The notes beneath the pieces are model-generated. The model searched no databases. It was not told the origin of the DNA and saw nothing but the letters and a program-made list of their open reading frames with translations. A DNA stretch of 64,000 bases from Ianthella basta (taxonomy: Eukaryota > Porifera > Demospongiae > Verongiida > Ianthellidae): positions 700,168-764,167 of the forward strand of contig OZ025879.1 in assembly GCA_964019415.1 (NCBI GenBank), written 5' to 3'. Shown in pieces: positions 1 through 38,138 of this stretch (position 1 is its first letter; the number at the start of each line of letters is the position of its first letter). Made by a program: the position numbers and the translations under genes.

Positions 1-57
1 GGGTCAGATTGCTAGCCTAACGTGGTGACTGCATTGCCATCACTTGTGTCCGTACAG

Positions 58-163
58 GGACAGTGTAACGACTGATGCTGAAACAGGGACGGGTTACGAC
101 TACCCAGCAGATTGCAGTGTCCAGTTGGAGGAGAACTCAGCATACGCTAGCATGAGGAAATAA
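58..163 (+). CDS. Family 2 receptor, last exon only (cytoplasmic tail)
   Basis: Only the terminal exon of a family 2 gene lies in the window; the rest is off the left edge. The acceptor is at 56-57, and the exon begins in phase 2 like its paralogues at 16690 and 25577. It encodes a tail with a YDYPAD segment and ends ENSAYASMRK, then TAA at 161-163. The intact paralogues read ENPAYASM, an NPxY motif (PTB-domain type) overlapping YxxM (p85/PI3K SH2 type). Here the Pro is replaced by Ser, so the PTB-type motif is lost while YASM remains. Homology to complete copies is clear; the function of the family is inferred from motifs only. Confidence 0.75.
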
Positions 164-1723
164 TGATATTCATGAGTAGCATAGTCATCAGTCCGGACTA
201 GAGGTGGAGAACCTCTATTGGTGACTACAGTAGGAGAATACGAATTGAGTTGATCGACACATTGTTACGCAGATAGAAAGCGCGCCGGAGTGGTGAGCCA
301 GTTGCGGTGAGAGTGGTGGGGTATAGGGAATGGCAGTCGCTAGATCCAAGTTCTTGTTACCGTGGTTGGAAGCCGCTCGTAACATAGGCGACATGAAACT
401 GGAGTGGAATCGGAGCATGAGCCTTTCAGGACTGCAATCTCATTTAATTTCGTGCGCTCCATCCGCCGCACACGATAGTCTAATGACTAGCCTACGTAGG
501 AGGCCGCGGCCGCCCCCTCCCCCCCCCCTCGGGTCCAGGCCCTAGCTGTTGATGTTGTAGCTACTGCTGAGCTCGTGAAGGTTCGTCTTAAGTCACGTTA
601 GAATGGCAGGTTCCTTGGCGTTGCTGGTGGCTATGTGCTTCAATTAGTCAAAGAGACTACCCCTCAATGATTCCTTGGAAGTGGTACATTCATTAGCAGA
701 AGCTGTTCTTGTTTTTGGGGTAGGCTAAGTGCTGTGATGTCATGGCTGACATGATGTCAGACACAGACATTGGCCACACGGCTTCCTTGGGTTGTGTTAG
801 TGTACACTGAAGTAGCTTGTGTCCCTCACAGAGTAACCAACCAATGGAATGTTGTGTGTGTACTACTAATAACCATTCATGTCTGCAGTGAATAACGCAT
901 CCTCTGTTGACCTTGCCTTGTGGCTCAAGGACTGCATGGTTCCAGCTGTACTTCCTACACTGGCAATTATCTACAAAGTTGTCTTTCACGCATGTTCCTC
1001 AGTGGTTGAGCCCATGCAGGCAGATCAACTTCTATTGCAGATGTAGCCTCACACCCAGATCCATATGCGCCGCTGGCACATGTGCATGGGTCTGGGTACG
1101 AGACTATTGCAGATGTCACTGAAGACATTACAGGATAGGCTGTTGAGGATGCTTGCAGGTCCTTGAATTCTGTTGATTGTGCATGGGTGACGCAGAGTAC
1201 CTAATGATACATTAAACTGCACAAATGTAGCATACTTAATTTGAGGAGGTCCTCCAACTGTACACAGCATGCCATCAGGCGAAGCTATATCCTGGGTAGC
1301 TATATATGTACTTAGATAGCCTGTAGGATTCCAAGTAAACTCTCATCTTTGCATATGAATTACTTCAAAGTCTCTTAATCTATCAAAAATGGTGTGGAAA
1401 GTGTGGATATATACTGGCGTCAGTGTGAATGTCACACTAAAGTGACGATGTACTGATCACACCCTTAGTGTGGGCATTGAGTGCATGGTGTGACAGGGTC
1501 AAACCATTATTTTTAACAGTGTGGACAGTGAATGTGAAAGTGCAGTGAAGTTTATGTACAATCCATGCTGTGTTTTGTGGACTTGCTGATGGTAAATGAG
1601 GAGTGATTTGGATGAAGTTGCTATTATTTGCAGAGGGAATACTCTGGTTAATATTGAATGGTAAGGTTCAGTTACTTTGAAATTCTTCTGTCTGTGTAGG
1701 TTGTGACAGGACGAAGTGGTGGA
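164..1723. other. Module spacer between family 2 and family 1
   Basis: About 1.55 kb without a confident gene. Most of it recurs between family 2 and family 1 at about 16800-18640, 25690-28230 and 33660-35220, so it belongs to the duplicated module. It contains a short ATG frame at about 604 (MAGSLALLVAMCFN then stop) that is conserved between copies and resembles a signal peptide, and an open stretch after a TCTGCAG acceptor-like site near 890 (see findings). An acceptor-like tctgtgtag at 1691-1699, conserved 24 bases before every family 1 ATG, implies an upstream non-coding exon that I cannot place. Confidence 0.6.
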
Positions 1724-4029
1724 ATGGAGAGTGTGGTTGTGTTGTGTGTGTTGTCAGGTAAGTGGTGACCTGTGTAGTGGTCTGGGTGAGGCTGGGTGAG
1801 CAGACACTGAGTGATATCCACCTCTTTCCTCTTCAGCCTTTGGTGTACTTGTGGAAGGACAAGGCTACTTTGTACTACCACCTGAAAACAACTACGACTT
1901 CCCTCTTGATCCATACCTAGCAGCAGCGACTGTTGTTGTGTTCTGTTATTACAATGAAAGTGGAGCTATCTACACAATTACAAAGGGTGGAGATGTCCTT
2001 GATACTGTTGTAGTTCCAAATCAAGGAGTTCAGGTAATAGTTCATGTTCCCAATGGAGTCTACACCCCATCTGTGGAGGGCATCTACACATGCAGTGTAA
2101 CTGTAAGTAGAACGAACAGGGAAACAAGGGACACCATTGTCAGTTTACCAGGTAAGTTCTGTATGCAACATGTATTTGTCTCACATGCATAGTCAGGTAG
2201 TGTCTGTTAGCTAGTACCCCCCTCCCCCCCCTTGGCAGTGTTGTTCTTGGTTGATATGACCACTGCAGTGGTAACTGCAGGAGAGACAGTGTCAGTGAAC
2301 TGCAGTCAGACAGGATACATCAGAACAGACTGGAGCTGGAGGAGGAATGGAATTGACATCACATCTAATATGAGCGAGAGAGTGTACACTGAGCTGTCAA
2401 CAAGGACCAATCTGGGCCCAACTTTTAGCAACAAGGCTGCCAACCACCAGAGTCTCTTCCTCCACTTGCGATATGCACGTGTGATGGACAACGGAGTTTA
2501 CACCTGTGTCACACAGGAAGGCACACAAACAGTCACACAGACAGTCACTGTGGATGTGCAGCCACCAGGTGGGACACACTACTGTGTGACAACTAAGTAT
2601 TAGGACATCATACCATATAAGGTGACCCATTGTGATCTGTATGCACCACTCTCTGTACATGTTCCTCCTACTGCTTCCCTCACAGCCAATGTCAGGTTCA
2701 ATGATAGTGGCCCAGTGAGCTATGAGGTGCCTCTGCCCTTTGAAAACAACAATGTGTCCTACACTGACTTCCTCTACAGTGGCAGTGAGGACAGTGGGAT
2801 GCTGAGGAGTGGAAGGGGTCAGTTGGTGGATGGGGTGACAGGGACGGCGATACTGGACACAGACGAGGGGAGGTTCCCGTGGGTGGGGTGGACCGCACCC
2901 CTTGAGGAGATCATCTTTGACTTTGGCAGCCTCCATCAGTTTGGCTCTATCTCAGTGCATGCTTACTTCAACAGCTTAGGAGTGAGATGGTTTAGTACTA
3001 TTGAGGTGGCCATCTCTCAAAACATGGAACAGTGGAATGCATTCTCCCGACAACTAAATGACCTTCGTGGCCCACAGAATGTTATGGTGCCAACTGTGAT
3101 GGCCGACAACAGCACTGCAGAAGGTCGTTATGTCCGCCTTCGCTTTGGTGGCTTTCAAGGCTCAGGGCTAATGCTCATCAGTGAGGTGTCCTTTGACAGT
3201 ACAGCTGGTGAGTTTCTTAACAGCCTAATAGCTACTCAAAAATACAGGTTGCTTCCACATCCTGACCCACTCTGCTGTGTTTGTTTGCTCCTTCACAGTA
3301 CCTCCACCCAGTCCACCAGTGAGCATTGATGGCATTGTGGTAGGAGTAATTGTTGCAATTGCTGCTTTGATTGTTGTAATCATCACTGCATCTATCACTA
3401 TCTCTTGCATCATAAAGAAGAGAAGGGTATCAACCAGGGCACCAAGGTGAGCTACACACCAACTGCACAGTCTGTACCCATGTACACAGTGCATATACAT
3501 TACCAAAGTGACTGGTGTCATGAACCCAGCCCTAGTGTAATGACAAACGTCTACTCTGGCTGAAGACTGTGGTAAGTGGCTATTGCACAATAGTCCTTTG
3601 ATTGTTGCTATGGGTATATGCACTACATGTATAAAGGGAACCAGGTTACCGCTTCACATCAATCATGCAGAGATGTGTGGTATGTAACTTAAATATAGCA
3701 GAGATATTCAATTGTACACATCTGTAGTGTATTATAGGATATGTATGCTTGCAACAAATTGTTTAGCACATTGCTCTCCCCTCAGAGGTGAAGGCTCTGT
3801 ACATGACTACAGCTATCCTTATAATTACAACAATCCTCCAACTGAGATGGTCAAGAATCCAGCTTATGTTACCATGGAAACAGGCCAGATTGTGAGGTCC
3901 CAAAATGATGAAGGCAATGTGACGGACCATGCCTGCGCAACAATTGGTAGGGAAGGGGACAATACAGAAGCTAGTGCACTGAGTGATGAGGACACACAGC
4001 AGAGTAACCCTGAGCCTTCATACATATGA
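1724..4029 (+). CDS. Family 1 receptor A: Ig-Ig-DDR DS-like-TM with NPAY/YxxM tail
   Basis: Six coding exons: 1724-1757, 1837-2151, 2239-2568, 2686-3207, 3299-3446, 3786-4029, giving 530 residues. Introns are GT-AG, phase 1 except the last (phase 2). Residues 1-20 form a signal peptide (MESVVVLCVLS). Exon 2 is an Ig-like domain with Cys48 and Cys97. Exon 3 is a canonical Ig domain: Cys138, Trp148, then DNGVYTC ending at Cys206. Exon 4 (residues 227-400) resembles the DS-like domain of DDR receptors: GQLVDGV, FPWVGW, a beta-rich middle and ISEVSF near the end. The helix is residues 413-439, followed by KKRR. The tail has [17 protein letters not shown] (NPxY overlapping YxxM) and C-terminal EPSYI, a class I PDZ-type end. 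No kinase domain is present. The tyrosine of DHxYATI is Cys here. Ligand unknown; role as adhesion or recognition receptor is inferred. Confidence 0.85.
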
Positions 4030-4599
4030 AGATGCTGATTTTTTTGCAGGGTACCCAAAACTGTCAACCTCTATAGCTAATAACATACGTAGGCTACAGA
4101 TAGAGTATTGCAGCATATACTTTTGTAGATGCACAGGATATGTACATACTGTATGTACAATTGTTATGGACTATTGGCTAATAATGGTGGATGAAACCAA
4201 TTTGGTCCAATTACTGCAGTGTTGTTTCCTTTGATGAGAGCTCTAGGGAGTCCTTATCCTGTGTTTAGTATACAAATACAAAGAGTACATTAATAGCACA
4301 TCTTGTTCTGTCTGTACCGACCTATGTGGGCGATTCCATTTGATGATGGAATCATTGCTTGTAATGTGTTACTATATTACCAAGATTTCCTGTTTCTGCA
4401 TGCACATGTGTTGCTGTGTGAAGGATTAGTTGATAATGGCCCATCTGGTCAGATGGAGTCTGTAAATTTACTTCAAATGGAAAACACTAAGTCTTGATGC
4501 TGATGAGTAAGCTTATCTGGATGCATGTCATACAATAAGATGTACATTGTACCGTTATATTCATAGGAGCTGAATTTGTATGTGTGGGGGAGGGGTGCT

Positions 4600-6096: not shown

Positions 6097-6199
<103 letters not shown>

Positions 6200-6327
6200 T
6201 TATTGAATGGTAGCGTTTAGTCAGTCACTTTAATTTCAACTTGCTTCTGTCTGTGTAGGTTGTGACAAGACGAAATGGTGAAATGGAGTGTGTGGTTGCG
6301 ATGTGTCCTTTGTCAGCTCAACTTTTG

Positions 6328-6684: not shown

Positions 6685-7977
6685 ATGTGTCCTTCCATTG
6701 CACCTGTATGTGTGTTACTGCTGTTGGTAATTGCACGTTGCACTGAAGGTAAGCAAGTAATGTGTTTGTAGCACATGCAGAGCTGAAGACAATTATTTAT
6801 AAGTATGCACAATCCTATCACATGCCCCATGTACATGTAGAAGATGCTATATATATTGTCAGTGCTTCCCTCACGATAGTAGTTAATGGACTTCATGTAT
6901 GCATGTATGTGAGATGTGGAGTTCGTCCTACACTCGCATGCTGGGTGGTAACAATACTGTACCATTATACTAACCCTTTGTGGTCTTGGACATTCCCGAA
7001 GAATGGTGTGTTGGTAGTGTCAGGATGGATTTCAATACAGATTCAGTACTTTTGACTCCATCCATAAACATAATAGTCCACAACATGACACAGATGTGCA
7101 ACAAGAGCCACACTGTTCAAGCAATGTCCGTCAGGTGAAACAGATAATTTTTCTGTAGTATTCAACTTTAACACTACTTATATTTACATGTGGAAGGCAC
7201 CTCAGGATTGACATAAGTGGTCCTGACAGAGACTGCTGCATATATTTGGTGTATGTGAGTGTTCCTTGTGTGTTGTGAACAGTACAGTCATGTGAGCCCA
7301 ATCCCCACAACTATAAACAGCACCACACCCACTAATCTACCCTCATTTCATATAATAGGCTTTACTAATGACATTATTGGATTCACACTGGTGTTCTCTA
7401 GCTCTGAGGCCTTTAGTCCACAGCACAGAGCACCTCTCCAATGATATTGACAAGATAACGGTCAATTAGTAGTAGTTGCAATACTGTCATCAGCTATGAT
7501 GGGCTGTACAACCATTGCTTGTGGGAAGTACTTCAAACAAGACATTGGCTTTCGACACGATGTTTCTAACAGAGTTTGAAACGAATTATTTGAAGCAGAA
7601 ACTGCCAGCTCTCCCACTCAGCTGCTAATGCTGATTGATGCTCACGCTCATGTGTAACTAGTGTATTCAGCTAAGACAGCCTGCTAGCCTTGTATGTCAA
7701 CCACATGTGCCTCCAGGTCTCATGCCATCTCAGTAGTGTATGCATTGTGGTAGTATCCTGTCAGCATACTACGTACCTGTTCGTGTCCATGCTGCTATAA
7801 TGTACAATATATACTGCATGAAATCGACAATGCCTACAGTACAATCAACACTCTGGAAACTATTCATGTTGACTGCTGAAAGTCTGCTCTCTTTCCCTTT
7901 CCAATTCAGGACCTGAATTGCTTCCTACACCCTTGCCCACATCCTTAGGCAATATTACTACTGGAGAAAGCAGTACA
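6685..7977 (+). pseudogene. Family 2 receptor, 5' part only (copy 1)
   Basis: The signal-peptide exon is intact at 6685-6748 (MCPSIAPVCVLLLLVIARCTE, donor GTAAGC, phase 1), preceded by a tcttccag acceptor for a leader exon. A stalk exon starts at 7910 after TTCAG (GPELLPTPLPTSLGNITT) but breaks off near 7977, where sequence switches directly to the region just upstream of family 1 exon 1 of gene B. The transmembrane and tail exons and the usual 1.5-kb spacer are missing. The remaining exons are phase 1, so splicing into gene B exon 2 is possible; otherwise this is a truncated gene. Confidence 0.65.
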
Positions 7978-8043
7978 TGTATGATGTTTAGTCACTTTCG
8001 AATTGTTCTGTCTGTGTAGGTTGTGACAGGACGAAGTGGTAGA

Positions 8044-10346
8044 ATGGAGTGTGTGGTTGTGTTGTGTCTGTTGTCAGGTAAGTGGTGACCTGTGTAGTGG
8101 TCTGGGTGAGGCTGGGTGAACAGACACTTAGTGATATCTACCTCTTTCCTCTTCAGCTATTTCTGTGCTTGTGGAAGGACAGGGCAACTTTGTACTACCA
8201 CCTGAAGACAACCACAACCTTGTTCTTGATCCATACTTTGCAGCAGAGACTGTCATTGTGTTCTGTATTTATAATGTAACAGGAGCTACGCCTAACTATG
8301 TGTTTAGAAAGGATGGAGTTCGCATTGAAACTGGTATACTACCAAATCAAGGAGTCAGTATACCTGTTCCCAATGGAGACTACACCCCATCAGTGGAGGG
8401 CACCTACACATGCAGTGTAACTGTAAATGGACAACTCAGGGGATCAAGGGACACCATTGTCAGTTTACCAGGTTAGCACATTTTATATCATGTATTTGTC
8501 TCACATGCACAGTCAGGTAGTGTCTGTTAGCTAGTACCCCCCCCCCCCTTGGTAGTATTGTTCTTGGTTGATATGACCACTGCAGTGGTAACTGCAGGAG
8601 AGACAGTGTCAGTGAACTGCAGTCAGACAGGATACATCAGAACAGACTGGAGCTGGAGGAGGAATGGAATTGACATCACATCTAATATGAGCGAGAGAGT
8701 GTACACTGAGCTGTCAACAAGGACCAATCTGGGCCCAACTTTTAGCAACAAGGCTGCCAACCACCAGAGTCTCTTCCTCCACTTGCGATATGCACGTGTG
8801 ATGGACAACGGAGTTTACACCTGTGTCACACAGGAAGGTACACAAACAGTCACACAGACAGTCACTGTGGATGTGCAGCCACCAGGTGGGACACACTACT
8901 GTGTGACAACTAAGTATTATGACATCATACCATATAAGGTGACCCATTGTGATCTGTATGCACCACTCTCTGTACATGTTCCTCCTACTGCTTCCCTCAC
9001 AGCCAATGTCAGGTTCAATGATAGTGGCCCAGTGAGCTATGAGGTGCCTCTGCCCTTTGAAAACAACAATGTGTCCTACACTGACTTCCTCTACAGTGGC
9101 AGTGAGGACAGTGGGATGCTGAGGGGTGGAAGGGGTCAGTTGGTGGATGGGGTGACAGGGATGGCGATACTGGACACAGACGAGGGGAGGTTCCCATGGG
9201 TGGGGTGGACCACACCCCTTGAGGAGATCATCTTTGACTTTGGCAGCCTCCATCAGTTTGGCTCCATCTCAGTGCATGCTTACTTCAACAGCTTAGGAGT
9301 GAGATGGTTTAGTACTATTGAGGTGGCCATCTCTCAAAACATGGAACAGTGGAATGCATTCTCCCGACAACTAAATGACCTTCGTGGCCCACAGAATGTT
9401 ATGGTGCCAACTGTGATGGCCGACAACAGCACTGCGGAAGGTCGTTATGTCCGCCTTCGCTTTGGTGGCTTTCAAGGCTCAGAGCTAATGCTCATCAGTG
9501 AGGTGTCCTTTGACAGTACAGCTGGTGAGTTTCTTAACAGCCTAATAGCTACTCAAAAATACAGGTTGCTTCCACATCCTGACCCACTCTGCTGTGTTTG
9601 TTTGCTCCTTCACAGTACCTCCACCCAGTCCACCAGTGAGCATTGATGGCATTGTGGTAGGAGTAATTGTTGCAATTGCTGCTTTGATTGTTGTAATCAT
9701 CACTGCATCTATCACTATCTCTTGCATCATAAAGAAGAGAAGGGTATCAACCAGGGCACCAAGGTGAGCTACACACCAACTGCACAGTCTGTACCCATGT
9801 ACACAGTGCATATACATTACCAAGGTGACTGGTGTCATGAACCCAGCCCTAGTGTAATGACAAACGTCTACTCTGGCAGAAGACTGTGGTAAGTGGCTAT
9901 TGCACGATAGTCCTTTGGTTATTGCTATGGGTATATGCACTACGTGTATAAAGGGAACCAGGTTATCGCTTCACATCAATCATGCAGAGATGTGTGGTAT
10001 GTAACTTAAATATAGCAGAGATATTCAATTGTACACATCTGTAGTGTATTATAGGATATGTATGCTTGCAACAAATTGTTTAGCACATTGCTCTCCCCTC
10101 AGAGGTGAAGGCTCTGTACATGACTACAGCTATCCTTATAATTACAACAATCCTCCAACTGAGATGGTCAAGAATCCAGCTTATGTTACCATGGAAACAG
10201 GCCAGATTGTGAGGTCCCAAAATGATGAAGGCAATGTGACGGACCATGCCTGCGCAACAATTGGTAGGGAAGGGGACAATACAGAAGCTAGTGCACTGAG
10301 TGATGAGGACACACAGCAGAGTAACCCTGAGCCTTCATACATATGA
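8044..10346 (+). CDS. Family 1 receptor B: Ig-Ig-DDR DS-like-TM with NPAY/YxxM tail
   Basis: Exons 8044-8077, 8157-8471, 8556-8885, 9003-9524, 9616-9763, 10103-10346; 530 residues. Domain order is as in gene A. Exons 3, 5 and 6 encode the same protein as A and exon 4 differs at only about four residues, but exon 2 (first Ig domain) is strongly different and instead resembles copies D, E and F. The donor after exon 2 is GTTAGC rather than GTAAGT, and if not used an in-frame TAG follows at once, giving a 114-residue product, so this splice decides whether the gene is functional. Introns 3 and 4 are free of in-frame stops here, unlike in A. The normal upstream spacer is replaced by the truncated family 2 gene, so its promoter context differs from the other copies. 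The DHxYATI tyrosine is Cys, as in A. Confidence 0.8.
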
Positions 10347-12105: not shown

Positions 12106-12107
12106 AT

Positions 12108-12545
12108 ACCAGCCGAGTGTCCCATGTCAGTGCTACCAGCTGATGGCAGAGAGGGAAGAAGAGTGTAGTGCTAATTTCACAGTGCAGATGCAATAACAGT
12201 GCTACGTATGTTACGATACAGTACATACTACTTGTTGTAGATGGGCCTCTAGATGACGCTGTTGGCATCAGTTGTGTAGTGCTTTCTCTGGTAGTACTGG
12301 TTACCTGAGAATGTGGACAGCATGGGTGTAGGAAATGATCAGGTCCTGAATTGTAACAGGAAAGAGAGTAGACTTTCAGCAGTCAACATGCATGAATAGT
12401 TTCCAGAGTGTTGTACTTCCCACAAGCATTGTCATTGGAGAGGTGCTCTGTGCTATGGACTGAAGGCCTCAGAACTAGAGAACACCAGTGTGAAATCCCA
12501 TAATTATGTCATTAGTTAATAAGGCCTATTATATGAAATGAGGGA
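12108..12545 (-). pseudogene. Inverted fragment of a family 2 gene
   Basis: Read on the minus strand this is part of a family 2 gene: upstream intron sequence (12545 down to about 12354, matching 7340-7900 with internal deletions), a stalk exon (about 12353-12240, open in phase 1, containing STTQLMPTASSRGP), an intron and the first bases of the transmembrane exon (GSTDMGHSAG) ending at 12108. It is joined on the left to the 3' block of gene B and on the right to the middle of family 1 exon 4 of copy C. It is a rearrangement scar and cannot be expressed as a complete gene. Confidence 0.75.
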
Positions 12546-24500: not shown

Positions 24501-25682
24501 AATCTGTGTGAGCTACAGTGTGTATTGATCCTAAGTACAGCCCATCCTAGTGTATACTGCAACATCCAGCTAGCTCTGCCTGTTACCTCCACCCACATGG
24601 ATTGTGTCTCCTCAGCTCACACTACTATAACCTGCATGAATTCACAATGAAAGTTACTGTCATTGCAAATATCACGCACTGTAGGTACACCACCCATACA
24701 CCTCCTCCCTCAGCCAGTGGCAATCATGCAGCTTCGTGCTCATTCCCTAATTCCATTCCCACTTCTGCTCTGGAAGGAAGTGGAAATAGGGACTGAGTAC
24801 GAAGCTACATTGCATGTAGGGAGTAATTCATGACGACAGTACATCGGCTTGAAATATGCTTCTAACAGATATTCAGGCGTAGATGTATTAAAAACAGACA
24901 GTATCAACTCCCCACTCAGCTGGTAATGCTGCTTTATGTTCTTGTCCATCTGTGTGGCTAGTGTGCTCATCTAACACTTCCTGCTAACTTCTCTATCCAC
25001 TGTACCTCCAGGGCTCATGGCATCTCAGTAGTGTATGCACTGTGGCTGTCAGCAGAGTACCTGTTCGTATTCATAATGCTGGCAAATAATGCAACTACAA
25101 TGTCTACGGTACAAATAGCAATCTGTCTATCTAATTGACTGGTTAAAAGTTTGCTTCTTTCCTGTTCCAATTCAGGAACTGAAGTGCTTCCTACACCCAT
25201 GCTGCCTGCATTCTCAGGCAACATAGCTACTGGAGAAAGTACTACACAACTGATGCCAACGATGTCCTCTAGAGGCCCACCTACACCAAGTAGTATGTAC
25301 TGTATTGTGACATATGCAGCACCGTCATTGCATCTGCACTGTGAAATTAGCACTACACTCTTCTTCCCTCTCTGCCACCAGCTGGTAGCACTGACATGGG
25401 ACACTCGGCTGGAATCTCTAGTGCGCTGTTCTTTGCTGGTCCTGTTGGGGCACTGTCTGTGGTATGTTACAATTGGAAGAGTCAGCAAGTAAGGACAAGG
25501 ACAAGGTGAGTGGTCATGTGGGTCAGATTACTAGCCTAACGTGGTGACTGCATTGCCACCACTTGTGTCCATACAGGGACAATGCAATAACTGGTGATAA
25601 AACAAGGACGGCTTACGACTACCCAGCAGACTGCAGTGTCCAGTTGGAGGAGAACCCAGCATATGCCAGCATGAGGAAATAA
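21556..25682 (+). CDS. Family 2 receptor, copy 3: stalk-TM-NPAYASM tail, shortened TM
   Basis: Exons: 21556-21619 (MCLSIVPVCVLLLLVIERCTE, phase 1), 25176-25289 (stalk TEVLPTPMLPAFSGNIAT), 25382-25505 (TM), 25577-25682 (tail). The TM exon lacks 27 bases relative to copy 2 (residues GMLAGAVFA), leaving about 18 hydrophobic residues, so membrane insertion should still be possible but with a shorter helix. The tail ends ENPAYASMRK. The first intron is about 3.5 kb and is crowded with a 57-bp minisatellite, fossil family 1 exons and a transposon, so the leader exon and the rest may no longer be joined in a transcript. Confidence 0.6.
21862..22345. repeat. 57-bp minisatellite, about 8.4 copies
   Basis: A 57-base unit is repeated about 8.4 times with few changes. 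Because 57 is a multiple of three, every frame is periodic: one + frame reads MNFTGEYGIPCKHWASGAP, another CPNELHRGIWHPLQTLGIW, and two minus frames are also open. This explains the long reading frames here. No signal peptide or conserved neighbour supports coding. It lies within the first intron of family 2 copy 3. Confidence 0.9.
22840..23770 (+). pseudogene. Fossil family 1 exons 3 and 4
   Basis: At 22846-22922 there is a decayed end of exon 3 (ATGGACAATAGAGTGTACAC, then CAGCCACCAGGTG). At 23136-23374 there is a decayed exon 4 with the acceptor CCCTCACAG, GQLVDGV and FPWVGWAT still readable, interrupted by frameshifts. The fossil continues after an inserted transposon at 23703 with an ACTTCAACAGCTTAGGAGTG block. 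A sister fossil of exon 3 is at 32520-32610. These are old, non-functional family 1 copies. Confidence 0.75.
23375..23702. mobile_element. Non-autonomous DNA transposon (328 bp) with 5-bp target duplication
   Basis: Terminal inverted repeats CAGTGGCGTAGGAAG and CTTCCTACGCCCCTG. The element is flanked on both sides directly by CTTGA (23370-23374 and 23703-23707), a clean target-site duplication. It is inserted in the fossil family 1 exon 4, whose sequence resumes on the far side. It has no coding capacity. The termini resemble hAT-type MITEs, but the 5-base duplication is not the typical 8, so the superfamily is left open. Confidence 0.85.
23771..25175. other. First-intron/upstream region of family 2 copy 3
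   Basis: About 1.4 kb closely matching 15,020-16,260 of copy 2 (for example 24,100-25,170). No confident exon is seen. A Ser-rich open stretch after CCTCAG near 24714 (ASGNHAASC) corresponds to the one at 15799, but lacks a clear donor. Confidence 0.5.
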
Positions 25683-28235
25683 TGATATTCATGAGTAGCA
25701 GTAGTCAATCAAATTGGTAGTCATCAGTCCGGACTAGAGGTGGAGAACCTCTATTGGTGACTACAGTAGGAGAATACGAATTGAGTTGGTCGACACATTG
25801 TTACGCAGAGAGCGCGCCGGAGTGGTGAGCCAGTTGCGGTGGGAGAGTGGTGGGGTATAGGGAATGGCAGTCGCTAGATCCAAGTTCTTGTTACCGTGGT
25901 TGGAAGACGCTCGTAACATAGGCGACATGAAACTGGAGTGGAATCCGAGCATGAGCCTTTCAGGACTGCAATCTCATTTAATTTCGTGCGATCCATCCGC
26001 CGCACGCGATAGTCTAATGAAACTAGCCTACGTAGGAGGCCGCGGTCGCCCCCCCCTCCGGTGTCACAGTTTATTTTACCCCCCGTATAAAGTATCCCCC
26101 CGGGTAACCGAAGGTTGGTTAAACGACACAGAAATGCTGATAGAAGCTAGTAAAATGCACCCTGCTGCAGGATGAGACTTACCACTACCAGAAGAGACTG
26201 TTAGGTGATGATATCTGCGAACCCTGCACTTCCTTCGCAGTCCTTGCAGAAGACCACATCGATCTTGTTAACTGACGACCGCGGTGAGGTTTTTGTCCTT
26301 CTACCATGGCTGGGATGCTTGTGTAGTCCTCTGAGTTCTCGAAGAATGTCAAGAGGGCACTACTACAACGAGCAGAAGTTTTTGAGTAGCAGTACGGCGT
26401 GCAGATTCGCAAACTGGTGGACATCGATGTGCAGGTACATCGACGCTACAGCCTGAGCATGTGAGGAGCATGAATGAATCTTAGCTACTGCTTGTCAAAG
26501 CAGGGTTGATGGCATCCAGAACAACCCCTCGAGGTGAAACACACCAAAAAGAGTTAAGGAATACTCAGAAATTCGAAGTCGGGGGATAAAGTATCCTAGT
26601 TTATTTTACCCGGAGGGGATACAAAACTGGGGGGATGGAATAAACCGTGACACCGGGTCCAGGCCCTAGCTATTGATGGTGTAGCTACAGCTGAGGTCGT
26701 GAAGGTTCGCGGTCTAAGTCACGCTAGAATGGCAGGTTCCTTGGTGTTGCTGGTGGCTATGTGCTTCAATTAGTCACAAAGAGACTAGCTACCCCCTCAA
26801 TGATTCCCTGGAAATGGTATTCATTAGCAGAAGCTCTTCTTGTTGTTGGGGTAGGCTAGCTAAGTGCTGTGATGTCGTGGCTGACATGATGCCGTACAGA
26901 CATTGGCCAGCTTCCTTGGATTGTGCTAATGTACACTGAAGTAGCTTGTGTCACTCACAGAGTAATCAGCCGATGGAATGTTGCGTGTGTACTACTAATA
27001 ACCATGCGTGTCTGCAGTGAATAGTGTATCCTCTGTTGGCCTTGCCTTCTGTCTCAAGGACTGCATAGTTCCAGCTGTAATTCCTTCACTTGCAAAATTA
27101 TGTACAAAGTTATCCTTCACACAAGCGTTCCTCAGTGGTTGAGCCCATGCAGGCAGATCAACTTCTATTCCAGATGTAGCCTCGTACCCAGACCCATATG
27201 TGCACCACTGGCACACTATGGGTCTGGGTACAAGACTATTGCAGATGTCACTGATGACATTACAGGATAGGCTGTTGAAGATGCTTGCAGGTCCTTGTCT
27301 TCTGTTGATGGTGTTGTTGACATCTCAGGAGAATTTGTTTTGGACATAAACCAGAAACCATGCATGCATGCACAGAAGGAGGTGGTCAGAGGCTGCACTG
27401 TCTGTGGCGTCTGCATGCATGGCAAGCTTGATGTCACAGCATCAGATCTTCAAGTTCACTCCTCACCACTGTGTTTCTGTCTGCTAACTTTGCACTGTTA
27501 AAAATGGGGAGTGATGATCACACCCATTTGCAGTGTGGTGTTCACTCCAACCATGCAGTATATACACAACAGACCATTTGTGTGAACAGTTTGTAAAAGA
27601 CTAAACACTTCACGGTACAATTCACTACAGATATGCATATATATAGTACACAGCATATCAGGATATAGCTACATATAAATAGTTTGTGCACGCATGGGTG
27701 ACACAGAGTACCTAATGATACATTGAACTGCACAAATATAGCATATACTTAGTTTGAGGAGGTCCTCCAACTGTACACAACATACCAACAGGCTAAGCTG
27801 TGTCCTGTGTAGCTATATATGTGCTTAGATAGCCTGCAGGATTCCAAATAGACTCTCATCTTTGCATATTAATTACTTCAAAGTCTCTTAATCTATCAGA
27901 AATGGTGTGGAAACGTATGGATACTGGTGTCAGTGTGAATATCACTAAAGTAACGGTGTGACTGATCACACCCTTGGTGTGAGCACTGAGCGCATGGTGT
28001 GACGGTCAAACCATTATTTTTAACAGTGTGGACAGTGAATGTGAAAGTGCAGTGAAGTTTATGTACAATCCATGCTGTGTTTTGTGGACTTGCTGATGGT
28101 AAATGAGGAGTGATTTGGATGAAGTTGCTATTATTTGCAGACTGAGGGAATACTCCGGTTAATATTGAATGGTAATGTTCAGTTACTTTCAACTCGTCTC
28201 TGTCTGTGTAGGCTGTGAAAGGACGAAGTGGTGGA
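25683..28235. other. Module spacer before gene E
   Basis: Paralogous to 164-1723 with a transposon inserted at 26060-26654. No confident gene. The conserved open stretch after CTGCAG (about 27016) is frameshifted in this copy. Confidence 0.55.
26060..26654. mobile_element. Non-autonomous DNA transposon (~595 bp) with long inverted ends
   Basis: The left end GGTGTCACAGTTTATT and the right end AATAAACCGTGACACC are inverted repeats extending imperfectly for about 40 bases into CCCC/GGGGATAC-containing sequence. It interrupts the module spacer; the uninterrupted sequence is seen at 17150-17170. If CCGG is taken as the target duplication, the ends are TGTCAC...GTGACA. A minus-strand frame of about 80 codons inside has no recognisable transposase motifs. 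Confidence 0.75.
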
Positions 28236-30624
28236 ATGGAGTGTGTGGTTGTGTTGTGTCTGTTGTCAGGTAAGTGGTGACCTGTGTAGTGGTCTGGGTG
28301 AGGCTGGGTGAACAGACACTGAGTGATATCCACCTTTTTCCTCTTCAGCCGTTGGTGTACTTGTGGAAGGACAGGGCAACTTTGTACTACCACCTGAAGA
28401 CAACTACAACCTTCCTCTTGATCCATATGAAGCAGCAGATTCTGTAACTGTGTTCTGTTTTTATAATGAAACTGGAGCTACGCCTAACTATGTGTTTAGA
28501 AAGGATGGTGTTCGCATTGAAACTGGTATAGTGCCAAATGTAGGAGTCAGTATACCTGTTCCCAATGGAGACCACACCCCATCTGTGGAGGGCACCTACA
28601 CATGCAGTGTAATTGTAGATGGAATGAACAGGGGATCAAGGGACACCATTGTCAGCTTACCAGGTAAGTTCTGTATGCAACATGTATTTGTCTCACATGC
28701 ACGGTCAGGTAGTGTCTGTTAGCTAGTACCCTTCCCCCCCCCCCCCCCCCCTGCAGTGTTGTTCTCAGTTGATATGGCCACTGCAGTAGTAACTGCAGGA
28801 GAGACAGTGTCAGTGAACTGCAGTCAGACAGGCTACATCAGGACAGACTGGAGCTGGAGGAGGAATGGAGCTGACATCACATCTGATACGAGGGAGAGAG
28901 TGTACACTGAGATGTCAACAAGGACCAATTTGAGACCAGTGGTAGGTAATGTTGTTCCCAACCACCAGAGTCTCTTCCTCCACTTGCGGTATGCACGTGT
29001 GATGGACAATGGAGTGTACAGATGTGTCACACAAACAGTCACACAGACAGTCACTGTGGATGTGCAGCCACCAGGTGGGACACTCTACTGTATGGCAACT
29101 AAGTTGAATCAGCCATAGTTATTAGGACATCATGCCATATAAGGCCAGCTACCCATGTAAGCTGTATGCACCACTCTCTGCACATGTTCCTCCTACTGCT
29201 TCCCTCACAGCCAATGTCAGGTTCAATGACAGTGGCCCAGTGAGCTATGAGGTGCCTCTGCCCTTTGAGAACAACACTGTGTCCTACACTGACTTCCTCT
29301 ACAGTGGCAGTGAGGGCAGTGGGATGCTGAGGGGAGGAGTGGGTCAGCTGGTGGATGGGGTGACAGGGACGGCGACACTGGACACAAATGAGGGGAGATT
29401 CCCGTGGGTGGGGTGGAGCACACCCCTTGAGGAGATCATCTTTGACTTTGGCAGCCTCCATCAGTTTAGCTCTGTCTCAGTGCATGCTTACTTCAACAGC
29501 TCAGGAGTGAGATGGTTTAGCACTATTGAGGTGGCCATCTCTCAAAACATGGAACAGTGGAATGCATTCTCCCGACAACTAAATGACCTTCGTGGCCCAC
29601 AGAATGTTATGGTGCCAACTGTGATGACTGCTGGCAGTACTGTAGAAGGTCGTTATGTCCGTCTTCGCTTTGACAACTTCCAAGGCTCAGGGCTAATGCT
29701 CATCAGTGAGGTGTCCTTTGACAGTACAGCTGGTGAGTTTCTTAATAGCTTACTCATGCAGCTGACCCACTCTGCTGTGTTTGTTGCTCCTTCACAGTAC
29801 CTCCACTCAGTGCACCAGTGAGCATTGATGGCCTACTGGTAGGAGTAATTGTTGCAATTGCTGCTCTGATTGTTGTAATCATCACTGCATCCCTTGCTAC
29901 CTGCTGCATCATAAAGAAGAGAAGGGTGTCAACCAGGACACCGAGGTGAGCTACACACCAACTGCACAGTTTGTACCCATGTACACGCTTGCATGAAGCC
30001 TTATAAGTGTCGCTCCAACGTGAGTGTAATGACAAACGTATACTCTGACAGAAGACTGTGGGATGTAGGTGTTACACAATATCGCAGTTTATGAACACTG
30101 TCCTTTGGTTATTACTACACATATATACGTTCTGTATAAAGGGAACCAGATTACCATTTCACATTGATCATGCAGAGATGTGCATGTTAGTATGTACTTA
30201 CATTTTTACGTAAGATGAACAACTTAGTATGTACTTAAGTAACACAGGTATTCTATTCTACACATGCACTCACAGTGTAGAGTATTTCTATACTTGTAGC
30301 AAGTCATTCAGTACATTGCTCTCCCTCAGGGGTGAAAGTCCTGTACAATACAGCTATCCTTACAACAATCCTCCAACTGAGATGGAGAAGAACCCGGCTT
30401 ATGCTACCATAGAGACAGGCCAGAGTGTGGGGTCACAAAACGATGAAGGCAATGTGATGGATCATTCCTACGCAACAATTGACGCAAGGGAAGACAATAT
30501 AGCTAGCTACAGTGCACTAAGTGATGAGGACGCAACAATTGGCAGGGAGGAGGACAATACAGAAGCTAGTGCACTAAGTGATGAGGACACACTGCAAAGT
30601 ACTTCTGAGCCTTCATACATATGA
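28236..30624 (+). CDS. Family 1 receptor E: long-tail variant with YATI motifs
   Basis: Exons 28236-28269, 28349-28663, 28757-29074, 29211-29732, 29798-29945, 30330-30624; 543 residues, the longest copy. Domains as in gene A. Exon 3 lacks a four-residue piece (QEGT) near the second Ig cysteine. The TM exon has the ASLATCC variant shared with copy C. The tail is extended: NPAYATI replaces NPAYVTM, so YxxM becomes YxxI; then DHSYATI, an inserted DNIASYSALSDED segment, and C-terminal EPSYI. YxxI sites are ITIM-like in core, but Pro or His at the -2 position does not fit the strict ITIM consensus. This suggests a different SH2 partner from the YxxM copies (inference). Confidence 0.85.
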
Positions 30625-31919: not shown

Positions 31920-33656
31920 ATGTGTCTTTCCATTGCACCTGTGTGTGTGTTACTGCTGTTGGTAATTGCACCTTGCACTGAAGGTAAGCATGTAATGTGT
32001 TTGTAGCACATGCAGAGCTGAAGACAATTATTTAGAGAACAACAATCAGACATATGTATGGTCACTGCCATGCCAGACAGAATAGAGAGTGGTATGGTAT
32101 GGGGAATGGTAGTCGCTAGATCGAAGTTCTTGTTAGCTATCATGCTTGGGAGCCACTCATAAACAATAGCCATGCATGAAACTGGAGTGAAATCCGAGCA
32201 TGAGCCTTTCAGGACTGCAATCTCATTTTATTTCGTGTGATCCATCTGCTGCACATGATAATGAAACTAGCCTATAGCTATGAGAGGCCACAGCCGCCCT
32301 CTCCCAGGTCCAGGCCCTAGCTGTTGATGGTGTACCTACTGCTAAGGTTGTGAAGGTTTGTCTAAGTCTCGTTAGAATGAAAGGTTCCTTGGTGTTGCTG
32401 GTATGTACTTCAATTAGTCACAAAGAGACAAGAGACTAGCTACCCCCTCAATGATTCCCTGGAAATGGTACTCATCAGCAGAAGCTGTTCTTGTTGTTGG
32501 GAGTAGGCTACAGTATACATGTGTGTGCGATATGGACAATAGAGTGTACACCTGTCACAATAACAGACACATGGTCCACGACACAATATCTTGACATGTA
32601 GCCACCAGGTGCACAGGGCCCTACCATAGGACAGCAACAAGCTTTAAGCCATACATTGAAGTATCCTTCTCTTATGCAATTAGAATAGATTTAGTTAATT
32701 ATATATGGGATAGAGGAAATATGCATGGGCACCTATAACCATATTGGGCACTTGCACTCAATGGCTTTGCATGCATGCATTCACTGTACATGCTCCTCCT
32801 AATGCTTCCTCCTATAATGCTTCCCTCACAGCCAATGTGAGCTTCGTGCTCATCTCCTAATTTCATTCCCACTTCTGCTCTGGAAGGAAGTGGAAATAGG
32901 GACTGGGTACGAAGCTACATTGCATGTAATTCATGACGACAGTACATTGGCTTGTATATGTTTCTAACAGATATTCAGGTGTAAGTGTATTAAAAGCAGA
33001 TATTGTCAACTCCCCACTCAGCTGATAATGCTGCTTTATGTTCTTGTCCGTCCATGTGGCTAGTGTGCTCATCTAACACTTCCTGCTAACTTAAATTTGT
33101 CTATCCACTGTATTTCCAGGGCTCATGGCATCTCAGTAATGTATGCACTGTGGCTGTCAGCAGACTACCTGTTTTGTATTCATAATGCTGGCGAATAATG
33201 TAATTAGCAATGTGTACAGTACAAATAGCAATCTGTGTATCATATTGACTGGTTAAAAGTCTGCTTCTTTCCTGTTCCAATTAAGGAACTGAAGTGCTTC
33301 CTACACCCATGCTGCCTACATCCTCAGGCAACATTACTACTGGAGAAAGCACTACACAACTGATGCCAACGATGTCCTCTAGAGAACCACCTACACCAAG
33401 TAGTATGTATATACTGTGTTGTGACATATGCAGTACCGTCATTGCATCTGCACTGTGAAATTAGCACTACACTCTTCTTTCCTCTCTGCCACCAGCTGGT
33501 AGCACTGACATGGGACACTCGGCTGGTATCTCTAGTGCGCTGTTCTTTGCTGGCATGCTAGCTGGAGCTGTCTTTGCTAGTCCTGTTGGGGCATTGTCCA
33601 TGGTATGTTACAATTGGAAGAGGCAGCCAGCACGAGGAAATAATGACATTCATTAG
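31920..33656 (+). pseudogene. Family 2 receptor, copy 4: signalling tail deleted
   Basis: Signal exon 31920-31983 (MCLSIAPVCVLLLLVIAPCTE), stalk exon 33286-33399 (acceptor TTAAG instead of TTCAG), TM exon from 33496. A deletion joins the TM exon within KRQ directly to the last bases of the tail exon, so the frame reads KRQPARGNNDIH and stops at 33654-33656. YDYPAD and NPAYASM are gone. The helix ISSALFFAGMLAGAVFAS is intact. The product would be a membrane protein with almost no cytoplasmic tail: either a decoy-like form or a dead gene. Fossil family 1 exon 3 sequence lies in its first intron (32520-32610). Confidence 0.65.
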
Positions 33657-35224
33657 TAGCAGTAGTAAATCAAAATGGTAGTCATCAGTCGGACTAGAGG
33701 TGGAGAACCTCTATTGGTGACTACAGTAGGAGATACGAATTGAGTTGGTCGACACGTTGTTACGCAGATAGAGAGCGCGCCTGAGTGGTGAGCCAGTTGC
33801 GGTGGGAGAGTGGTGGGGTATAGGGAATGACAGTCGCTAGATCCAAGTTCTTGTTACCGTGGTTGGAAGCCGCTCGTAAACATAGGCCATGAAACTGGAG
33901 TGGAATCCGAGCATGAGCCTTTCAGGACTGCATTCTCATTTAATTTCGTGCGATCCATCCGCCGCACGCGATAGTCTACTGAAACTAGCCTACGTAGGAG
34001 GCCGCGGCCGCCCTCCCCCTCCCCAGGTCCAGGCCCTAGCTGTTGATGGTGTAGCTACTGCTGAGGTCGTGAAGGTTCGTCTTAATAAGTCACGTTAGAG
34101 TGATCGACAGGTTCCTTGGTTTTGCTGGTGGCTATGTGCTTCAATTAGTCACAAAGAGACTAGCTACCCCCTCAATGATTCCCTGGAAATGGTATTCATT
34201 AGCAACAGCTGTTCTTGTTTTTGGGGTAGGCTAAGTGCTGTGATGTCATGGCCAACATGATGTCCTACGCAGACATTGACCTGCTTCCATGGGTTCTGTT
34301 AATGTACAGTGAAGTAGCTTGTGTCACTCACAGAATAATCAGTCAATGAAATGTTGCATGTGTACTACTAATAACCATGCATGTCTGTAGTGAATAACAT
34401 ATCCTCTGTTGGCCTTGCCTTCTGTCTCAAGGACTGCATAGTTCCAGCTGTACTTCCTACACTGGCAATTATCTACAAAGTTATCCTTCACACGTTCCTC
34501 AGCGGTTGAGCCCATGCAGGCAGATCAACTTCTATTGCAGATGTAGCCTCGTACCCAGACCCATATGCACCACTGGCACACTATGGGTCTGGGTACAAGA
34601 CTATTGCAGATGTCACTGAAGACATTGCAGGATAGGCTATTGAGGATGCTTGCAGGTCCTTGAATTCTGTTGATTGTGCATGGGTGACGCAAAGTACCTA
34701 ATGATACATTAAACTGCACAAATGTAGCATACTTAATTTGAGGAGGTCCTCCAACTGTACACAGCATGCCATCAGGCGAAGCTATATCCTGGGTAGCTAT
34801 ATATGTACTTAGGTAGCTTGTAGGATTCCAAGTAAACTCTCATCTTTGCAAATGAATTACTTCAAAGTCTCTTAATCTATCAAAAATAGTGTGGAAAGTG
34901 TGGATATATACTGGTGTCAGTGTGAATGTCACACTAAAGTGACGGTGTGACTGATCACACCCTTAGTGTGAGCATTGAGTGCATGGTGTGACAGGGTCAA
35001 ACCATTTTTTAACAGTGTGGACAGTGAATGTGAAAGTGCAGTGAAGTTTACATACAATCCATGCTGTGTTTTGTGGACTTGCTGATGTTAAATGAGGAGT
35101 GATTTGGATGAAGTTGCTATTATTTGCAGAGGTAATACTCTGGTTAATATTGAATGGTAAGGTTCAGTTACTTTCAAATTGTTTCTGTCTGTGTAGGCTA
35201 GCTGTGACAGGACAAAGTGGTGGA
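33657..35224. other. Module spacer before gene F
   Basis: Paralogous to 164-1723. No confident gene. Conserved acceptor-like tctgtgtag at 35189-35197. Confidence 0.55.
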
Positions 35225-37497
35225 ATGGAGTGTGTGGTTGTGTTGTGTCTGTTGTCAGGTAAGTGGTGACCTGTGTAGTGGCCTGGGTGAGGCTGGGTGA
35301 ACAGACACTGAGTGATATCTACCTTTTTCCTCTTCAGTCGTTGGTGTGATTGTGGAAGGTCAGGGCAACTTTGTACTACCACCTGAAGACAACTACAACC
35401 TTCCTCTTGATCCATATGAAGCAGCAGATTCTGTTTTTGTGTTCTGTGTTTATAATGTAACAGGAGCTACGCCTAACCTTGTGTTTCGTAAGGATGGAGT
35501 TCGCATTGAAACTGGTATACTGCCAAATCAAGGAGTCGGTATACCTGTTCCCAATGGAGACTACACCCCATCAGTGGAGGGCACCTATACATGCAGTGTA
35601 ACTATAAATGGACAAAGCAGGGGAACAAGGGACACCATTGTCAGTTTACCAGGTAAGTTCATTTTGCATCATGAATTTGTCTCATATGTACAGTCAGGTA
35701 GTGTCTGTTAGCTAGTACCCCCCCCCCCCTCCCCCCCCGCAGTGTTGTTCTCAGTTGATGTGGCCACTGCAGTAGTAACTGCAGGAGAGACAGTGTCAGT
35801 GAACTGCAGTCAGACAGGATACATCAGAACAGAATGGAGCTGGAGGAGGAATGGAGCTGACATCACATCTGATATGAACGAGAGAGTGTACACTGAGCTG
35901 TCTGCAAGGACCAATTTGAGACCAGTGGTAGGTAATGTTGTTCCCAACCACCTGAGTCTCTTCCTCCACCTGCGGTATCCACGTGTGATGGACAATGGAG
36001 TTTACACATGTGTCGCAGAAACAGCCACACAGACAGTCACTGTGGACGTGCAGCCACCAGGTGGGTCACTCCATAACGTTTGACAACTAAGTATTAGGAC
36101 ATCATGCCATATATATAAGGCTAGCTATCCATTGTAAGCTGTATGCACCACTCTCTGTACATGTTCCTCCTACTGCTTCCCTCACAGCCAATGTCAGGTT
36201 CAATGACAGTGGCCCAGTGAGCTATGAGGTGCCTCTGCCCTTTGAGAACAACACTGTGTCCTACACTGACTTCCTCTACAGTGGCAGTGAGGACAGTGGG
36301 ATGCTGAGGGGAGGAGTGGGTCAGTTGGTGGATGGGGTGACAGGGACGGCGACACTGGACACAAATGAGGGGAGGTTCCCGTGGGTGGGGTGGACCACAC
36401 CCCTTGAGGAGATCATCTTTGACTTTGGTAGCCTCCATCAGTTTGGCTCTGTCTCAGTGCATGCTTACTTCAACAGCTCAGGAGTGAGATGGTTTAGTAC
36501 TATTGAGGTGGCCATCTCTCAAAACATGGAACAGTGGAATGCATTCTCTCAAGAACTAAATGACCTTCATGGCCCACAGAATGTTATGGTGCCAACTGTG
36601 ATGGCCGACAACAGCACTGCAGAAGGTCGTTATGTCCGTCTTCGCTTTGACAACTTCCAAGGCTCAGGGCTAATGCTCATCAGTGAGGTGTCCTTTGACA
36701 GTACAGTTGGTGAGTTTCTTAATAGCTTACTCATGCAGCTGACCCACTCTGCTGTGTTTCTTTGCTGCTTCGCAGTACCTCCCAGTGCACCAGTGAGTAT
36801 TGATGGCCTTCTGGTAGGAGTAATCGTTGCAATTGCTGCTCTAATTGTTGTAATAATCACTGCATCTATCACTATCTCTTGCATCATAAAGAAGAGAAGG
36901 GTGTCAACCAGGGCACCAAGGTGAGCTACACACTGACTGCACAGTTTGTATACCCATGTACACAGTGCATGCAATTACTACTAGTGTCATGAACCCAACC
37001 CTAGTGTAATGACAAACGTCTACTCTGGCAGAAGTCTGTGGTAAGTGGCTGCCGCACGATTGTCCTTTGATTATTGTTATGGGTATATGCACTACATGTA
37101 TAAAGGGAACCAGGTTACTGCTTCACATCAATAATGCAGAGATGTGTGGTATGCAACTTGAATGTAGCAGAGATCTGCAATTGTACACATCTGTAGCGTA
37201 AATAGAATATGCATGCTTGCGGCATTATGTTCAGCCCATTGCTCTCCCCTCAGAGGTGAAGGCTCTGCAGAGGACTACAGCTATCCTTACAATTACAACA
37301 ATCCTCCAACTGAGATGGTCAAGAATCCAGCTTATGTTACCATGGAAACAGGCCAGATTGTGAGGTCCCAAAATGATGAAGGCAATGTGACGGATCATGC
37401 CTACGCAACGATTGGTAGGGAGGAGAACAATACAGAAGCTAGTGCACTAAGTGATGAGGACACACTGCAAAGTGCTTCTGAGCCTTCATACATATGA
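35225..37497 (+). CDS. Family 1 receptor F: Ig-Ig-DDR DS-like-TM with NPAY/YxxM tail
   Basis: Exons 35225-35258, 35338-35652, 35743-36060, 36188-36709, 36776-36920, 37254-37497; 525 residues. Domains as in gene A. The mature N-terminus begins VVGVIVEGQG rather than AFGVLVEGQG. Exon 3 is shortened by a few residues before the second half of the Ig (VCAET instead of the QEGT form). Exon 5 is one codon shorter in the membrane-proximal linker (VPPSAPVSIDG). The tail carries [25 protein letters not shown] and ends EPSYI, so every motif is intact; this is one of the best candidates for a fully functional copy. Confidence 0.87.
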
Positions 37498-38138
37498 GGA
37501 TACTGGCATTCATTCAAAGGTGCTGATTTTGTTCAGAGCTGTCAATCTCTATAGCTAATAAACATGCGTAGACTACAAATAGAATATGGCAGTTTATATG
37601 TTTGTAGTTGCACAGGATATGTACAAATAGCAATATACTGTATGTGCAATTGTTATGGACTATCGGCTGAAATGGTGCATGAAACTGATTTGGTGCAATT
37701 ACTGCAGTGTTGTTTCCTTGATAAGAGCTCTAGGGAGTCCTTATCCTGTGTTGAGTATACAGATACAAATAGTATTTTGATAGCACATCTTGTTCTGTCT
37801 GTACCAACATTAACCTATGTGGGCGATTCCATTTGATGAAGAGATCATGCCTTCTAATGTGTAACTATACTACCAAGCTTTTTTGTTTCTGCACGCACAT
37901 GTGTCATATTGTGTGAAGGATTAGTTGATAGTGGCCCATCTGGTCAGATGGAGTTCGTAAACTTACTTCAAATGGAGAACACTTGACGCTGATGAGTAAG
38001 CTTAACTGGATTCATGCCCTACAGTAAGATGTACATTGTACCGTTATATTATAGGAGCTGCATGTGTATGCGTGTAAGGGGAAGGAGTGCTGTGATGTTG
38101 GGGGAGTACTTACAGCAGGCAGAGGACTGTGACATTAG

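What the first reader, a model, noticed from the sequence alone, without database searches (positions are those of the whole stretch)
1..38000. Tandem array of a paired-receptor module resembling an allorecognition-type complex
Seen: at least five repeats of [family 2 small receptor, spacer, family 1 Ig-Ig-DS-like receptor], all + strand, with intact and broken copies and strong signs of exchange. Known: clusters of polymorphic Ig-type transmembrane receptors with Tyr motifs (for example the Alr complex of Hydractinia) mediate allorecognition in colonial invertebrates. Inference: this sponge-like cluster could be an undescribed recognition or adhesion receptor complex.
Basis: partly seen in the sequence, partly recalled or inferred. 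Interest (0 to 1): 0.88.

Follow-up and report, generated by a model that had tools for sequence, protein, structure and literature searches.

The report
Kinase and kinase-less receptor array
This stretch of an animal genome carries a row of similar cell-surface receptor genes whose outermost part varies strongly between copies, next to one sister gene that ends in a signalling enzyme, so it is a good candidate for a recognition system but has not been shown to be one.

Summary
The window (C12:700168-764167 of a 209 Mb animal genome) holds six full and one partial copy of an Ig-Ig-DS-like-TM-tail gene; the array runs over C12:691.6-774.7 kb. The small second family is real as repeated exons, but several are broken and none shows coding constraint. 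New: the last array member, 7 kb beyond the window, joins the same ectodomain by a phase-1 intron to one exon with TM, NPxY site and an open tyrosine kinase closest to DDR1/DDR2. A gene at 59.2-62.5 kb fuses a copied laminin N-terminus to the same TM and tail. Exon 2 (distal Ig) is the variable part: two neighbours under 1% apart in exons 3-6 differ by 19% in exon 2, and exon-2 types move between copies, the kinase gene included. Of nine exon-2 sequences from other contigs that look like the same species, five match no copy here above 86%; three match at 95% or more. Best reading: a diversifying set of recognition or adhesion receptors, a DDR-like kinase with kinase-less partners. Allorecognition is possible, untested. 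Species not established.

The parts
1724..4029 (+). family 1 copy c1: exons 1724-1757 (signal), 1837-2151 (Ig1), 2239-2568 (Ig2), 2686-3207 (DS-like), 3299-3446 (TM), 3786-4029 (tail A)
   Evidence: Ig1 of the same type as in the kinase gene c8
8044..10346 (+). family 1 copy c2, six exons; 4.1-kb duplicate of c1 except exon 2; exon 2 donor GTTAGC
12552..13843 (+). family 1 fragment c3: 3' part of DS-like exon, TM exon, tail B
18645..21021 (+). family 1 copy c4, six exons; tail A ends early in ...DEYTL
28236..30624 (+). family 1 copy c5, six exons; tail B with YATI-x9-YSAL
35225..37497 (+). family 1 copy c6, six exons: 35225-35258, 35338-35652, 35743-36060, 36188-36709, 36776-36920, 37254-37497; 525 aa
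54422..56824 (+). family 1 copy c7, six exons, tail A
59235..62504 (+). chimera: open frame from 59235 with laminin N-terminal domain, three laminin EGF units, then the array's own TM exon (about 61753-61897) and tail A exon (from 62288, early stop); introns read as phase 1 up to the TM exon
   Evidence: Laminin_N 5.5e-44 and EGF_laminin; 58493-61508 is 88-92% identical to C12:780796-783677 in a laminin subunit gene
23146..23356 (+). decayed fragment of the DS-like exon (79%)
151..358 (+). family 2 tail-like exon, frame uncertain
6685..6750 (+). family 2 signal-peptide exon
7915..7986 (+). family 2 Ser/Thr/Pro-rich exon, truncated
14909..14974 (+). family 2 signal-peptide exon with in-frame TAA
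16262..16377 (+). family 2 Ser/Thr/Pro-rich exon
16468..16601 (+). family 2 transmembrane exon
16783..17010 (+). family 2 tail-like exon; this frame has stops in other copies
21556..21621 (+). family 2 signal-peptide exon
25176..25488 (+). family 2 Ser/Thr/Pro-rich exon and TM exon (TM lacks 9 residues)
25670..25892 (+). family 2 tail-like exon, frame uncertain
31920..31985 (+). family 2 signal-peptide exon
33286..33626 (+). family 2 Ser/Thr/Pro-rich exon and TM exon; following intron missing
33631..33855 (+). family 2 tail-like exon, frame uncertain

Best explanation
A tandem, diversifying cluster of type I membrane receptors built from exchangeable phase-1 exon cassettes. Shown: the distal Ig exon is the most variable ectodomain exon and is moved between copies; the DS-like exon is kept similar; one member ends in a DDR-type kinase, the others in a short tyrosine-rich tail. 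Inferred: the variable Ig1 contacts a variable ligand or partner; the DS-like part gives all members a common frame; ligand contact clusters kinase-bearing and kinase-less members, whose NPxY, YxxM, YxNx or paired YxxI/L sites are phosphorylated by the kinase member or by Src-type kinases and recruit PTB/SH2 adaptors. The kinase-less copies would thus be co-receptors, substrates or decoys of one DDR-like kinase, and the cluster a recognition or adhesion system.
For: Same ectodomain on two kinds of intracellular part, both joined in phase 1. Kinase closest to DDR2/DDR1 (3.8e-85; first Trk entry 3.5e-65), with VAIKKL, HRDLATRN and DFG present. DS-like domain passes Pfam PF21114; 12 of 13 scored candidates in the genome match PF21114, all 12 in this family on C12. 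A 712-aa protein of another assembly has DS-like, TM and kinase in the same order. Pooled dN/dS: Ig1 0.79 (dN 0.162), Ig2 0.63 (0.093), DS-like 0.41 (0.044). Ig1 is less conserved than DS-like in 6 of the 6 contig sets compared, four of them more distant assemblies. c1 shares its exon-2 type with kinase gene c8 although exons 3-4 group it with c2. P0058 has c7's intron read-through behind a different Ig1 type, P0059 has c6's behind a mosaic Ig1.
Against: No expression, protein or binding data. Ig1 dN/dS is below 1 overall and its codon bootstrap spans 0.56-1.18, so positive selection is not shown; windows above 1 also occur in Ig2 (3.13) and DS-like (2.53). Ig1 matches Pfam Ig models only below cut-off (23.4 bits in c2, 14.3 in c1, cut-off 27). 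An entry named EGFR (9p9u_A) stands among the DDR kinases at 3.2e-80. Kinase activity and trans-phosphorylation are inferred. Tyr motifs are short and could be chance; c1 and c2 have lost the YATI tyrosine.
Confidence: 0.62

Rival explanations
1. Allorecognition complex: exon-2 alleles decide fusion or rejection between individuals, as Alr genes do in Hydractinia.
For: Tandem cluster, variable distal Ig exon, exon swaps, and the three exon-2 sequences of contig 563574 whose best match here is 78-83% (P0059, P0065, P0067).
Against: No genetic or phenotypic link tested; three of nine same-species-like exon-2 sequences match a copy here at 95% or more; a kinase ectodomain and a laminin fusion are not needed for it; the main text of the Amphimedon graft study PMC5450542 has 0 occurrences of tyrosine kinase, immunoglobulin or discoidin.
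Confidence: 0.27
2. Matrix or collagen-type DDR-like receptors expanded for adhesion, with exon 2 varying by relaxed constraint and conversion only.
For: DS-like domain, DDR-type kinase, NPxY juxtamembrane site; a laminin short-arm fusion in the same cluster; Ig1 dN/dS not above 1.
Against: No separate N-terminal DS domain, the collagen-binding part of DDRs, was found; two Ig domains stand in its place. DS-like exon is constrained while Ig1 varies in 6 of 6 sets.
Confidence: 0.25
3. Immune or symbiont recognition receptors, with kinase-less copies as decoys or as activating/inhibitory pairs.
For: Tail B of c0 and c5 and of c3 (read) has an ITAM-like YATI-x9-YSxL, tail A does not; other contigs carry exon-2 types not seen here.
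Against: Spacing of 9 is outside the usual ITAM 6-8 (recalled); no microbial ligand data.
Confidence: 0.2
4. Assembly artefact: haplotypes placed side by side or a mis-joined repeat.
For: A 200-base gap lies in a long pyrimidine-rich repeat at 46301-46500.
Confidence: 0.03

Closest known systems
Discoidin domain receptors DDR1/DDR2
   Same: DS-like domain (PF21114) in all full copies; NPxY juxtamembrane site and DDR-type kinase in member c8
   Different: Two Ig domains where DDRs have the collagen-binding DS domain; the other seven full copies have no kinase; tandem array with exon swaps
Geodia cydonium receptor tyrosine kinase and sponge adhesion molecules SAML/GSAM
   Different: Here a DS-like domain follows the Ig pair; sequence similarity to 8qpx, named 'Receptor tyrosine kinase (Fragment)' (Geodia origin recalled), is weak (E 0.031)
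Hydractinia/Podocoryna Alr allorecognition complex
   Same: Chromosomal cluster of duplicated recognition genes (passages of PMC13119343); that they are Ig-type receptors is recalled
   Different: DS-like domain, kinase member and laminin fusion here; no allorecognition data. Domain detail of Alr is recalled
Kinase-impaired partners of receptor kinases (ErbB3-EGFR type)
   Same: One kinase-bearing and several kinase-less receptors with a shared ectodomain
   Different: Analogy only, recalled; ErbB3 keeps a pseudokinase, these have none

Membership tests
Discoidin domain receptor | DS-like domain | tested here: met
   PF21114 1.8e-18 and 5.5e-20, over cut-off; DDR1 8pe9 5e-05
Discoidin domain receptor | N-terminal collagen-binding DS (F5/8 C) domain before the DS-like domain | tested here: not met
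   exons 2 and 3 encode Ig-type domains; the F5_F8_type_C match falls inside the DS-like exon
Discoidin domain receptor | DDR-type tyrosine kinase | tested here: met
   only for c8; the 7 other full copies end in a short tail
Discoidin domain receptor | binds collagen | not testable with these tools
   -
Geodia RTK/SAM type | two Ig domains on kinase and on kinase-less receptors | tested here: met
   (architecture; the definition is recalled)
Geodia RTK/SAM type | homology of the Ig pair to the Geodia proteins | tested here: inconclusive
Alr allorecognition complex | tandem cluster of Ig-type membrane receptors with a variable distal domain | tested here: met
   (definition partly recalled)
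Alr allorecognition complex | alleles decide fusion or rejection | not testable with these tools
   -
Alr allorecognition complex | structural match to Alr domains | not tested
   no Alr model was compared
ITAM receptors | YxxI/L, 6-8 residues, YxxI/L | tested here: inconclusive
   spacing 9 in c0 and c5; c3 read from the translation

The most novel reading that the evidence does not exclude
An undescribed polymorphic recognition locus, shared by several related animals, in which one DDR-like receptor kinase and a changing set of kinase-less sisters draw their variable Ig exon from a common pool by gene conversion, so that sensor kinase and partners can be matched within a haplotype; a laminin arm has been recruited to the same tail. 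If the host is a sponge, this would be a concrete genomic candidate of this build for sponge self/non-self recognition.
Probability: 0.28. Interest if true: 0.92.

Novelty: new variant of a known kind. Interest (0 to 1): 0.74.

Why it matters
Which genes let simple sessile animals tell self from non-self, and how receptor kinases acquire variable recognition parts, are open questions. Here one locus offers a variable exon with a conserved neighbour exon as internal control, a kinase and kinase-less partners with one ectodomain, and relatives in other assemblies, so the question can be tested by ordinary amplicon sequencing, expression and binding work.

Tried and rejected
Family 2: a coding-signal scan of six spacer alignments (2-4 copies each; hits 1, 4, 3, 0, 3, 0 against 18 in the positive control) and a Pfam scan of 10 spacer ORFs (one weak match at 0.057) made me think family 2 absent. 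A hydrophobicity scan showed a recurring signal-like ORF, and proved the first view wrong. My family 2 tail frame from the copy at 16.8 kb has stops in other copies, so that tail is uncertain.

Descent of the short tail from the kinase juxtamembrane stretch: no usable similarity (15 bits, E 0.33). Positive selection on Ig1: not shown. The DS-like model is weak (pLDDT 67.7); its Foldseek list is discoidin/carbohydrate-binding type folds, DDR1 4ag4 at rank 4, used only as agreement. Ig1 profile against solved structures: best E 0.078. One gene-model script failed and was corrected (then 20).

Tree of DS-like domains: 57 of 63 rows kept, six short ones dropped (P0037, P0046, P0049, P0050, P0052, P0053). 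The array copies and rows of contig lengths 417762, 563574 and 59217 form one set of 13 rows (100/99); rows of contig 2550878 do not form one group (6 changes for 6 rows), so copies there are not simply contig-specific. In one search I compared six contig sets with at least three Ig1 and three DS-like matches each; smaller sets (for example 81041, 717909) were not compared.

Literature: nine searches. Discoidin domain receptor + immunoglobulin + sponge + Porifera returned 0 papers; that is one search of an open-licence library, no proof that nothing is in print. Passages only were seen of PMC6485061, PMC12018476, PMC7916673, PMC11999971 (not used), PMC13119343 and PMC5450542.

Full report
WHERE. 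The window is C12:700168-764167 of a genome of 209,087,449 bases in 96 contigs. The species is not given and no call establishes it. I fetched C12:600001-864000 in 20 pieces; several stretches read N, among them 764168-769167.

OBSERVATION. Family 1 is a six-exon gene: signal (34 nt), Ig1 (315 nt), Ig2 (about 315-330 nt), DS-like (522 nt), TM (145-148 nt), tail. By my reading introns 1-4 are phase 1 and intron 5 phase 2. Eight full copies (c0, c1, c2, c4-c8) plus the fragment c3 lie over C12:691.6-774.7 kb; all 8 are open. Pfam supports Ig2 and PF21114, the DS-like domain of discoidin receptors, over cut-off; Ig1 matches Ig_2 only below cut-off but its predicted model is an Ig fold. Genome-wide the DS-like exon gave 14 matches of 15 scored candidates, all on C12: this array and a minus-strand group at 1.651-1.658 Mb, 73-75% identical for its two long matches. 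The TM+tail query gave 20 matches of 34, again all on C12. The two sister genes at 1.65 Mb have tail-like matches and no kinase match in the 3.5 kb held of each.

FAMILY 2. Signal exon, Ser/Thr/Pro-rich exon, TM exon and tail-like exon recur upstream of family 1 copies. Signal exons: 5, at -5.0, 6.7, 14.9, 21.6 and 31.9 kb, each before the family 1 copy at 1.7, 8.0, 18.6, 28.2 and 35.2 kb. Units are visibly damaged, and pN is near pS (signal 0.038/0.047, stalk 0.055/0.051, TM 0.052/0.085), so they may be relics. None was found before c7 or c8.

THE KINASE MEMBER. The one relative of the spliced c6 protein found in the protein collection was a 712-aa protein with DS-like, TM and kinase. It matches C12:772580-774685 at 75-77%: copy c8 has Ig1, Ig2 and DS-like exons like the others, then a phase-1 acceptor and a single open exon with TM, juxtamembrane stretch (SNPIY, IYARP, VYAMP) and kinase. 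It is the one scored place in the genome where DS-like and kinase parts join (63 of 1164 candidates scored). Closest solved kinases are DDR2 and DDR1. DDR orthologues in sponges and ctenophores are mentioned in a passage of PMC6485061.

THE LAMININ CHIMERA. 58493-61508 of the window is an 88-92% copy of the start of a laminin subunit gene at C12:780.8-783.7 kb, which itself goes on with laminin IV and EGF domains. In the copy, Laminin_N and three EGF units are followed in phase 1 by the receptor TM exon and tail A. Whether it is expressed is unknown.

VARIATION. Over copies, Ig1 is the most and DS-like the least divergent ectodomain exon (dN 0.162, Ig2 0.093, DS-like 0.044; TM 0.062, tail 0.096). 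Intron 1 differs by 2.8% on average and intron 2 by 22%, so similarity is patchy. c1 and c2 are a recent 4.1-kb duplicate, yet exon 2 differs at 60 of 309 bases against 9 of 1244 in exons 3-6. In exon 2, c1 is closer to c8 (12.7%) than to c2 (19.4%); in exons 3-4 the figures are 8.8% and 1.1%. c5 and c6 are 0-10% apart in exons 1-4 but 27% in intron 5 and 18% in the tail, so tails seem to be swapped too. In Ig1, windows over residues 41-73 have pN/pS 1.2-1.4 and 11-30 has 1.57; single windows above 1 also occur in Ig2 and DS-like.

OTHER ASSEMBLIES. The DS-like query gave 52 relatives and the Ig1 profile 84. Several share a contig length, taken here as one contig: 2550878 with 6 DS-like (one of them the kinase protein) and 12 Ig1 matches; 1753209 with 5 and 10. 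Mean pairwise identity of Ig1 is below that of DS-like in 6 of the 6 sets compared (window 74.8 against 91.3%). Contig length 417762 carries the window's own copies. Nine further Ig1 sequences look like the same species. Their best matches to a copy here: P0073 70 of 71 (c6), P0060 97% (c7), P0063 95% (c8), P0057 90% (c6), P0058 86% (c0), P0065 83% (c8), P0067 81% (c8), P0059 78% (c0), P0062 76% (c7). P0065, P0067 and P0059 share contig length 563574. P0059 is followed by an intron read-through identical to c6's over 19 residues; its start is nearest c5 (46 of 50), its middle nearest c1 and c8 (14 of 19), its end equal to c0 (34 of 34). P0058 joins an intron read-through identical to c7's to another Ig1 type; P0063 joins c8's read-through to a c8-like Ig1. 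At the sister locus P0066 is 101 of 102 and P0061 96 of 104 identical in Ig1, P0007 165 of 174 in DS-like. That these are alleles rather than further loci or a close species is an inference.

TAILS. Tail A (c1, c2, c4, c6, c7, chimera): NPAY, YVTM (YVAM in the chimera), mostly YNNP. Tail B (c0, c5, by reading c3): NPAY and YATI-x9-YSxL. Six of the eight tails (7 copies and the chimera) keep YATI or YATV; c1 and c2 do not.

READING. The locus works like a set of paired receptors: one ectodomain type, several outputs, variable tip. It is not a DDR in the strict sense (no separate DS domain). It resembles the Geodia kinase/adhesion pair in build, with homology inconclusive, and the Alr complex in genome layout. 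I give 0.62 to a recognition or adhesion system built on a DDR-like kinase and kinase-less partners, 0.27 to allorecognition in particular.

Noticed in passing
C12:655-690 kb (L010-L013), upstream of the array: A second tandem group of membrane-protein ORFs, mostly on the minus strand, with two Ig ORFs at 655.7-657.1 kb; the four other ORFs scanned have no Pfam match over cut-off.
   Followed up: partly
window 40693-48500: Long pyrimidine-rich repeat of about 10-base units with strong GC skew and a 200-base gap at 46301-46500.
   Followed up: no
window 21804-22430 and 50986-51577: Tandem repeats of 57 and 33 bases.
   Followed up: no
C8 1.76-3.49 Mb and C21 2.05-2.67 Mb: Many Ig_3 exon matches in clusters elsewhere in the genome; 150 of 1638 candidates were scored.
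   Followed up: no
C12:804-864 kb (L019-L028): Minus-strand stretches that match the kinase part of P0001 or read by eye as SH3-SH2 pieces, and a retrotransposon-like ORF near 842-847 kb; not scanned with Pfam.
   Followed up: no
window 12103-12390: Inverted copy of a spacer segment with a family 2 stalk exon, so spacers have also been turned round.
   Followed up: no
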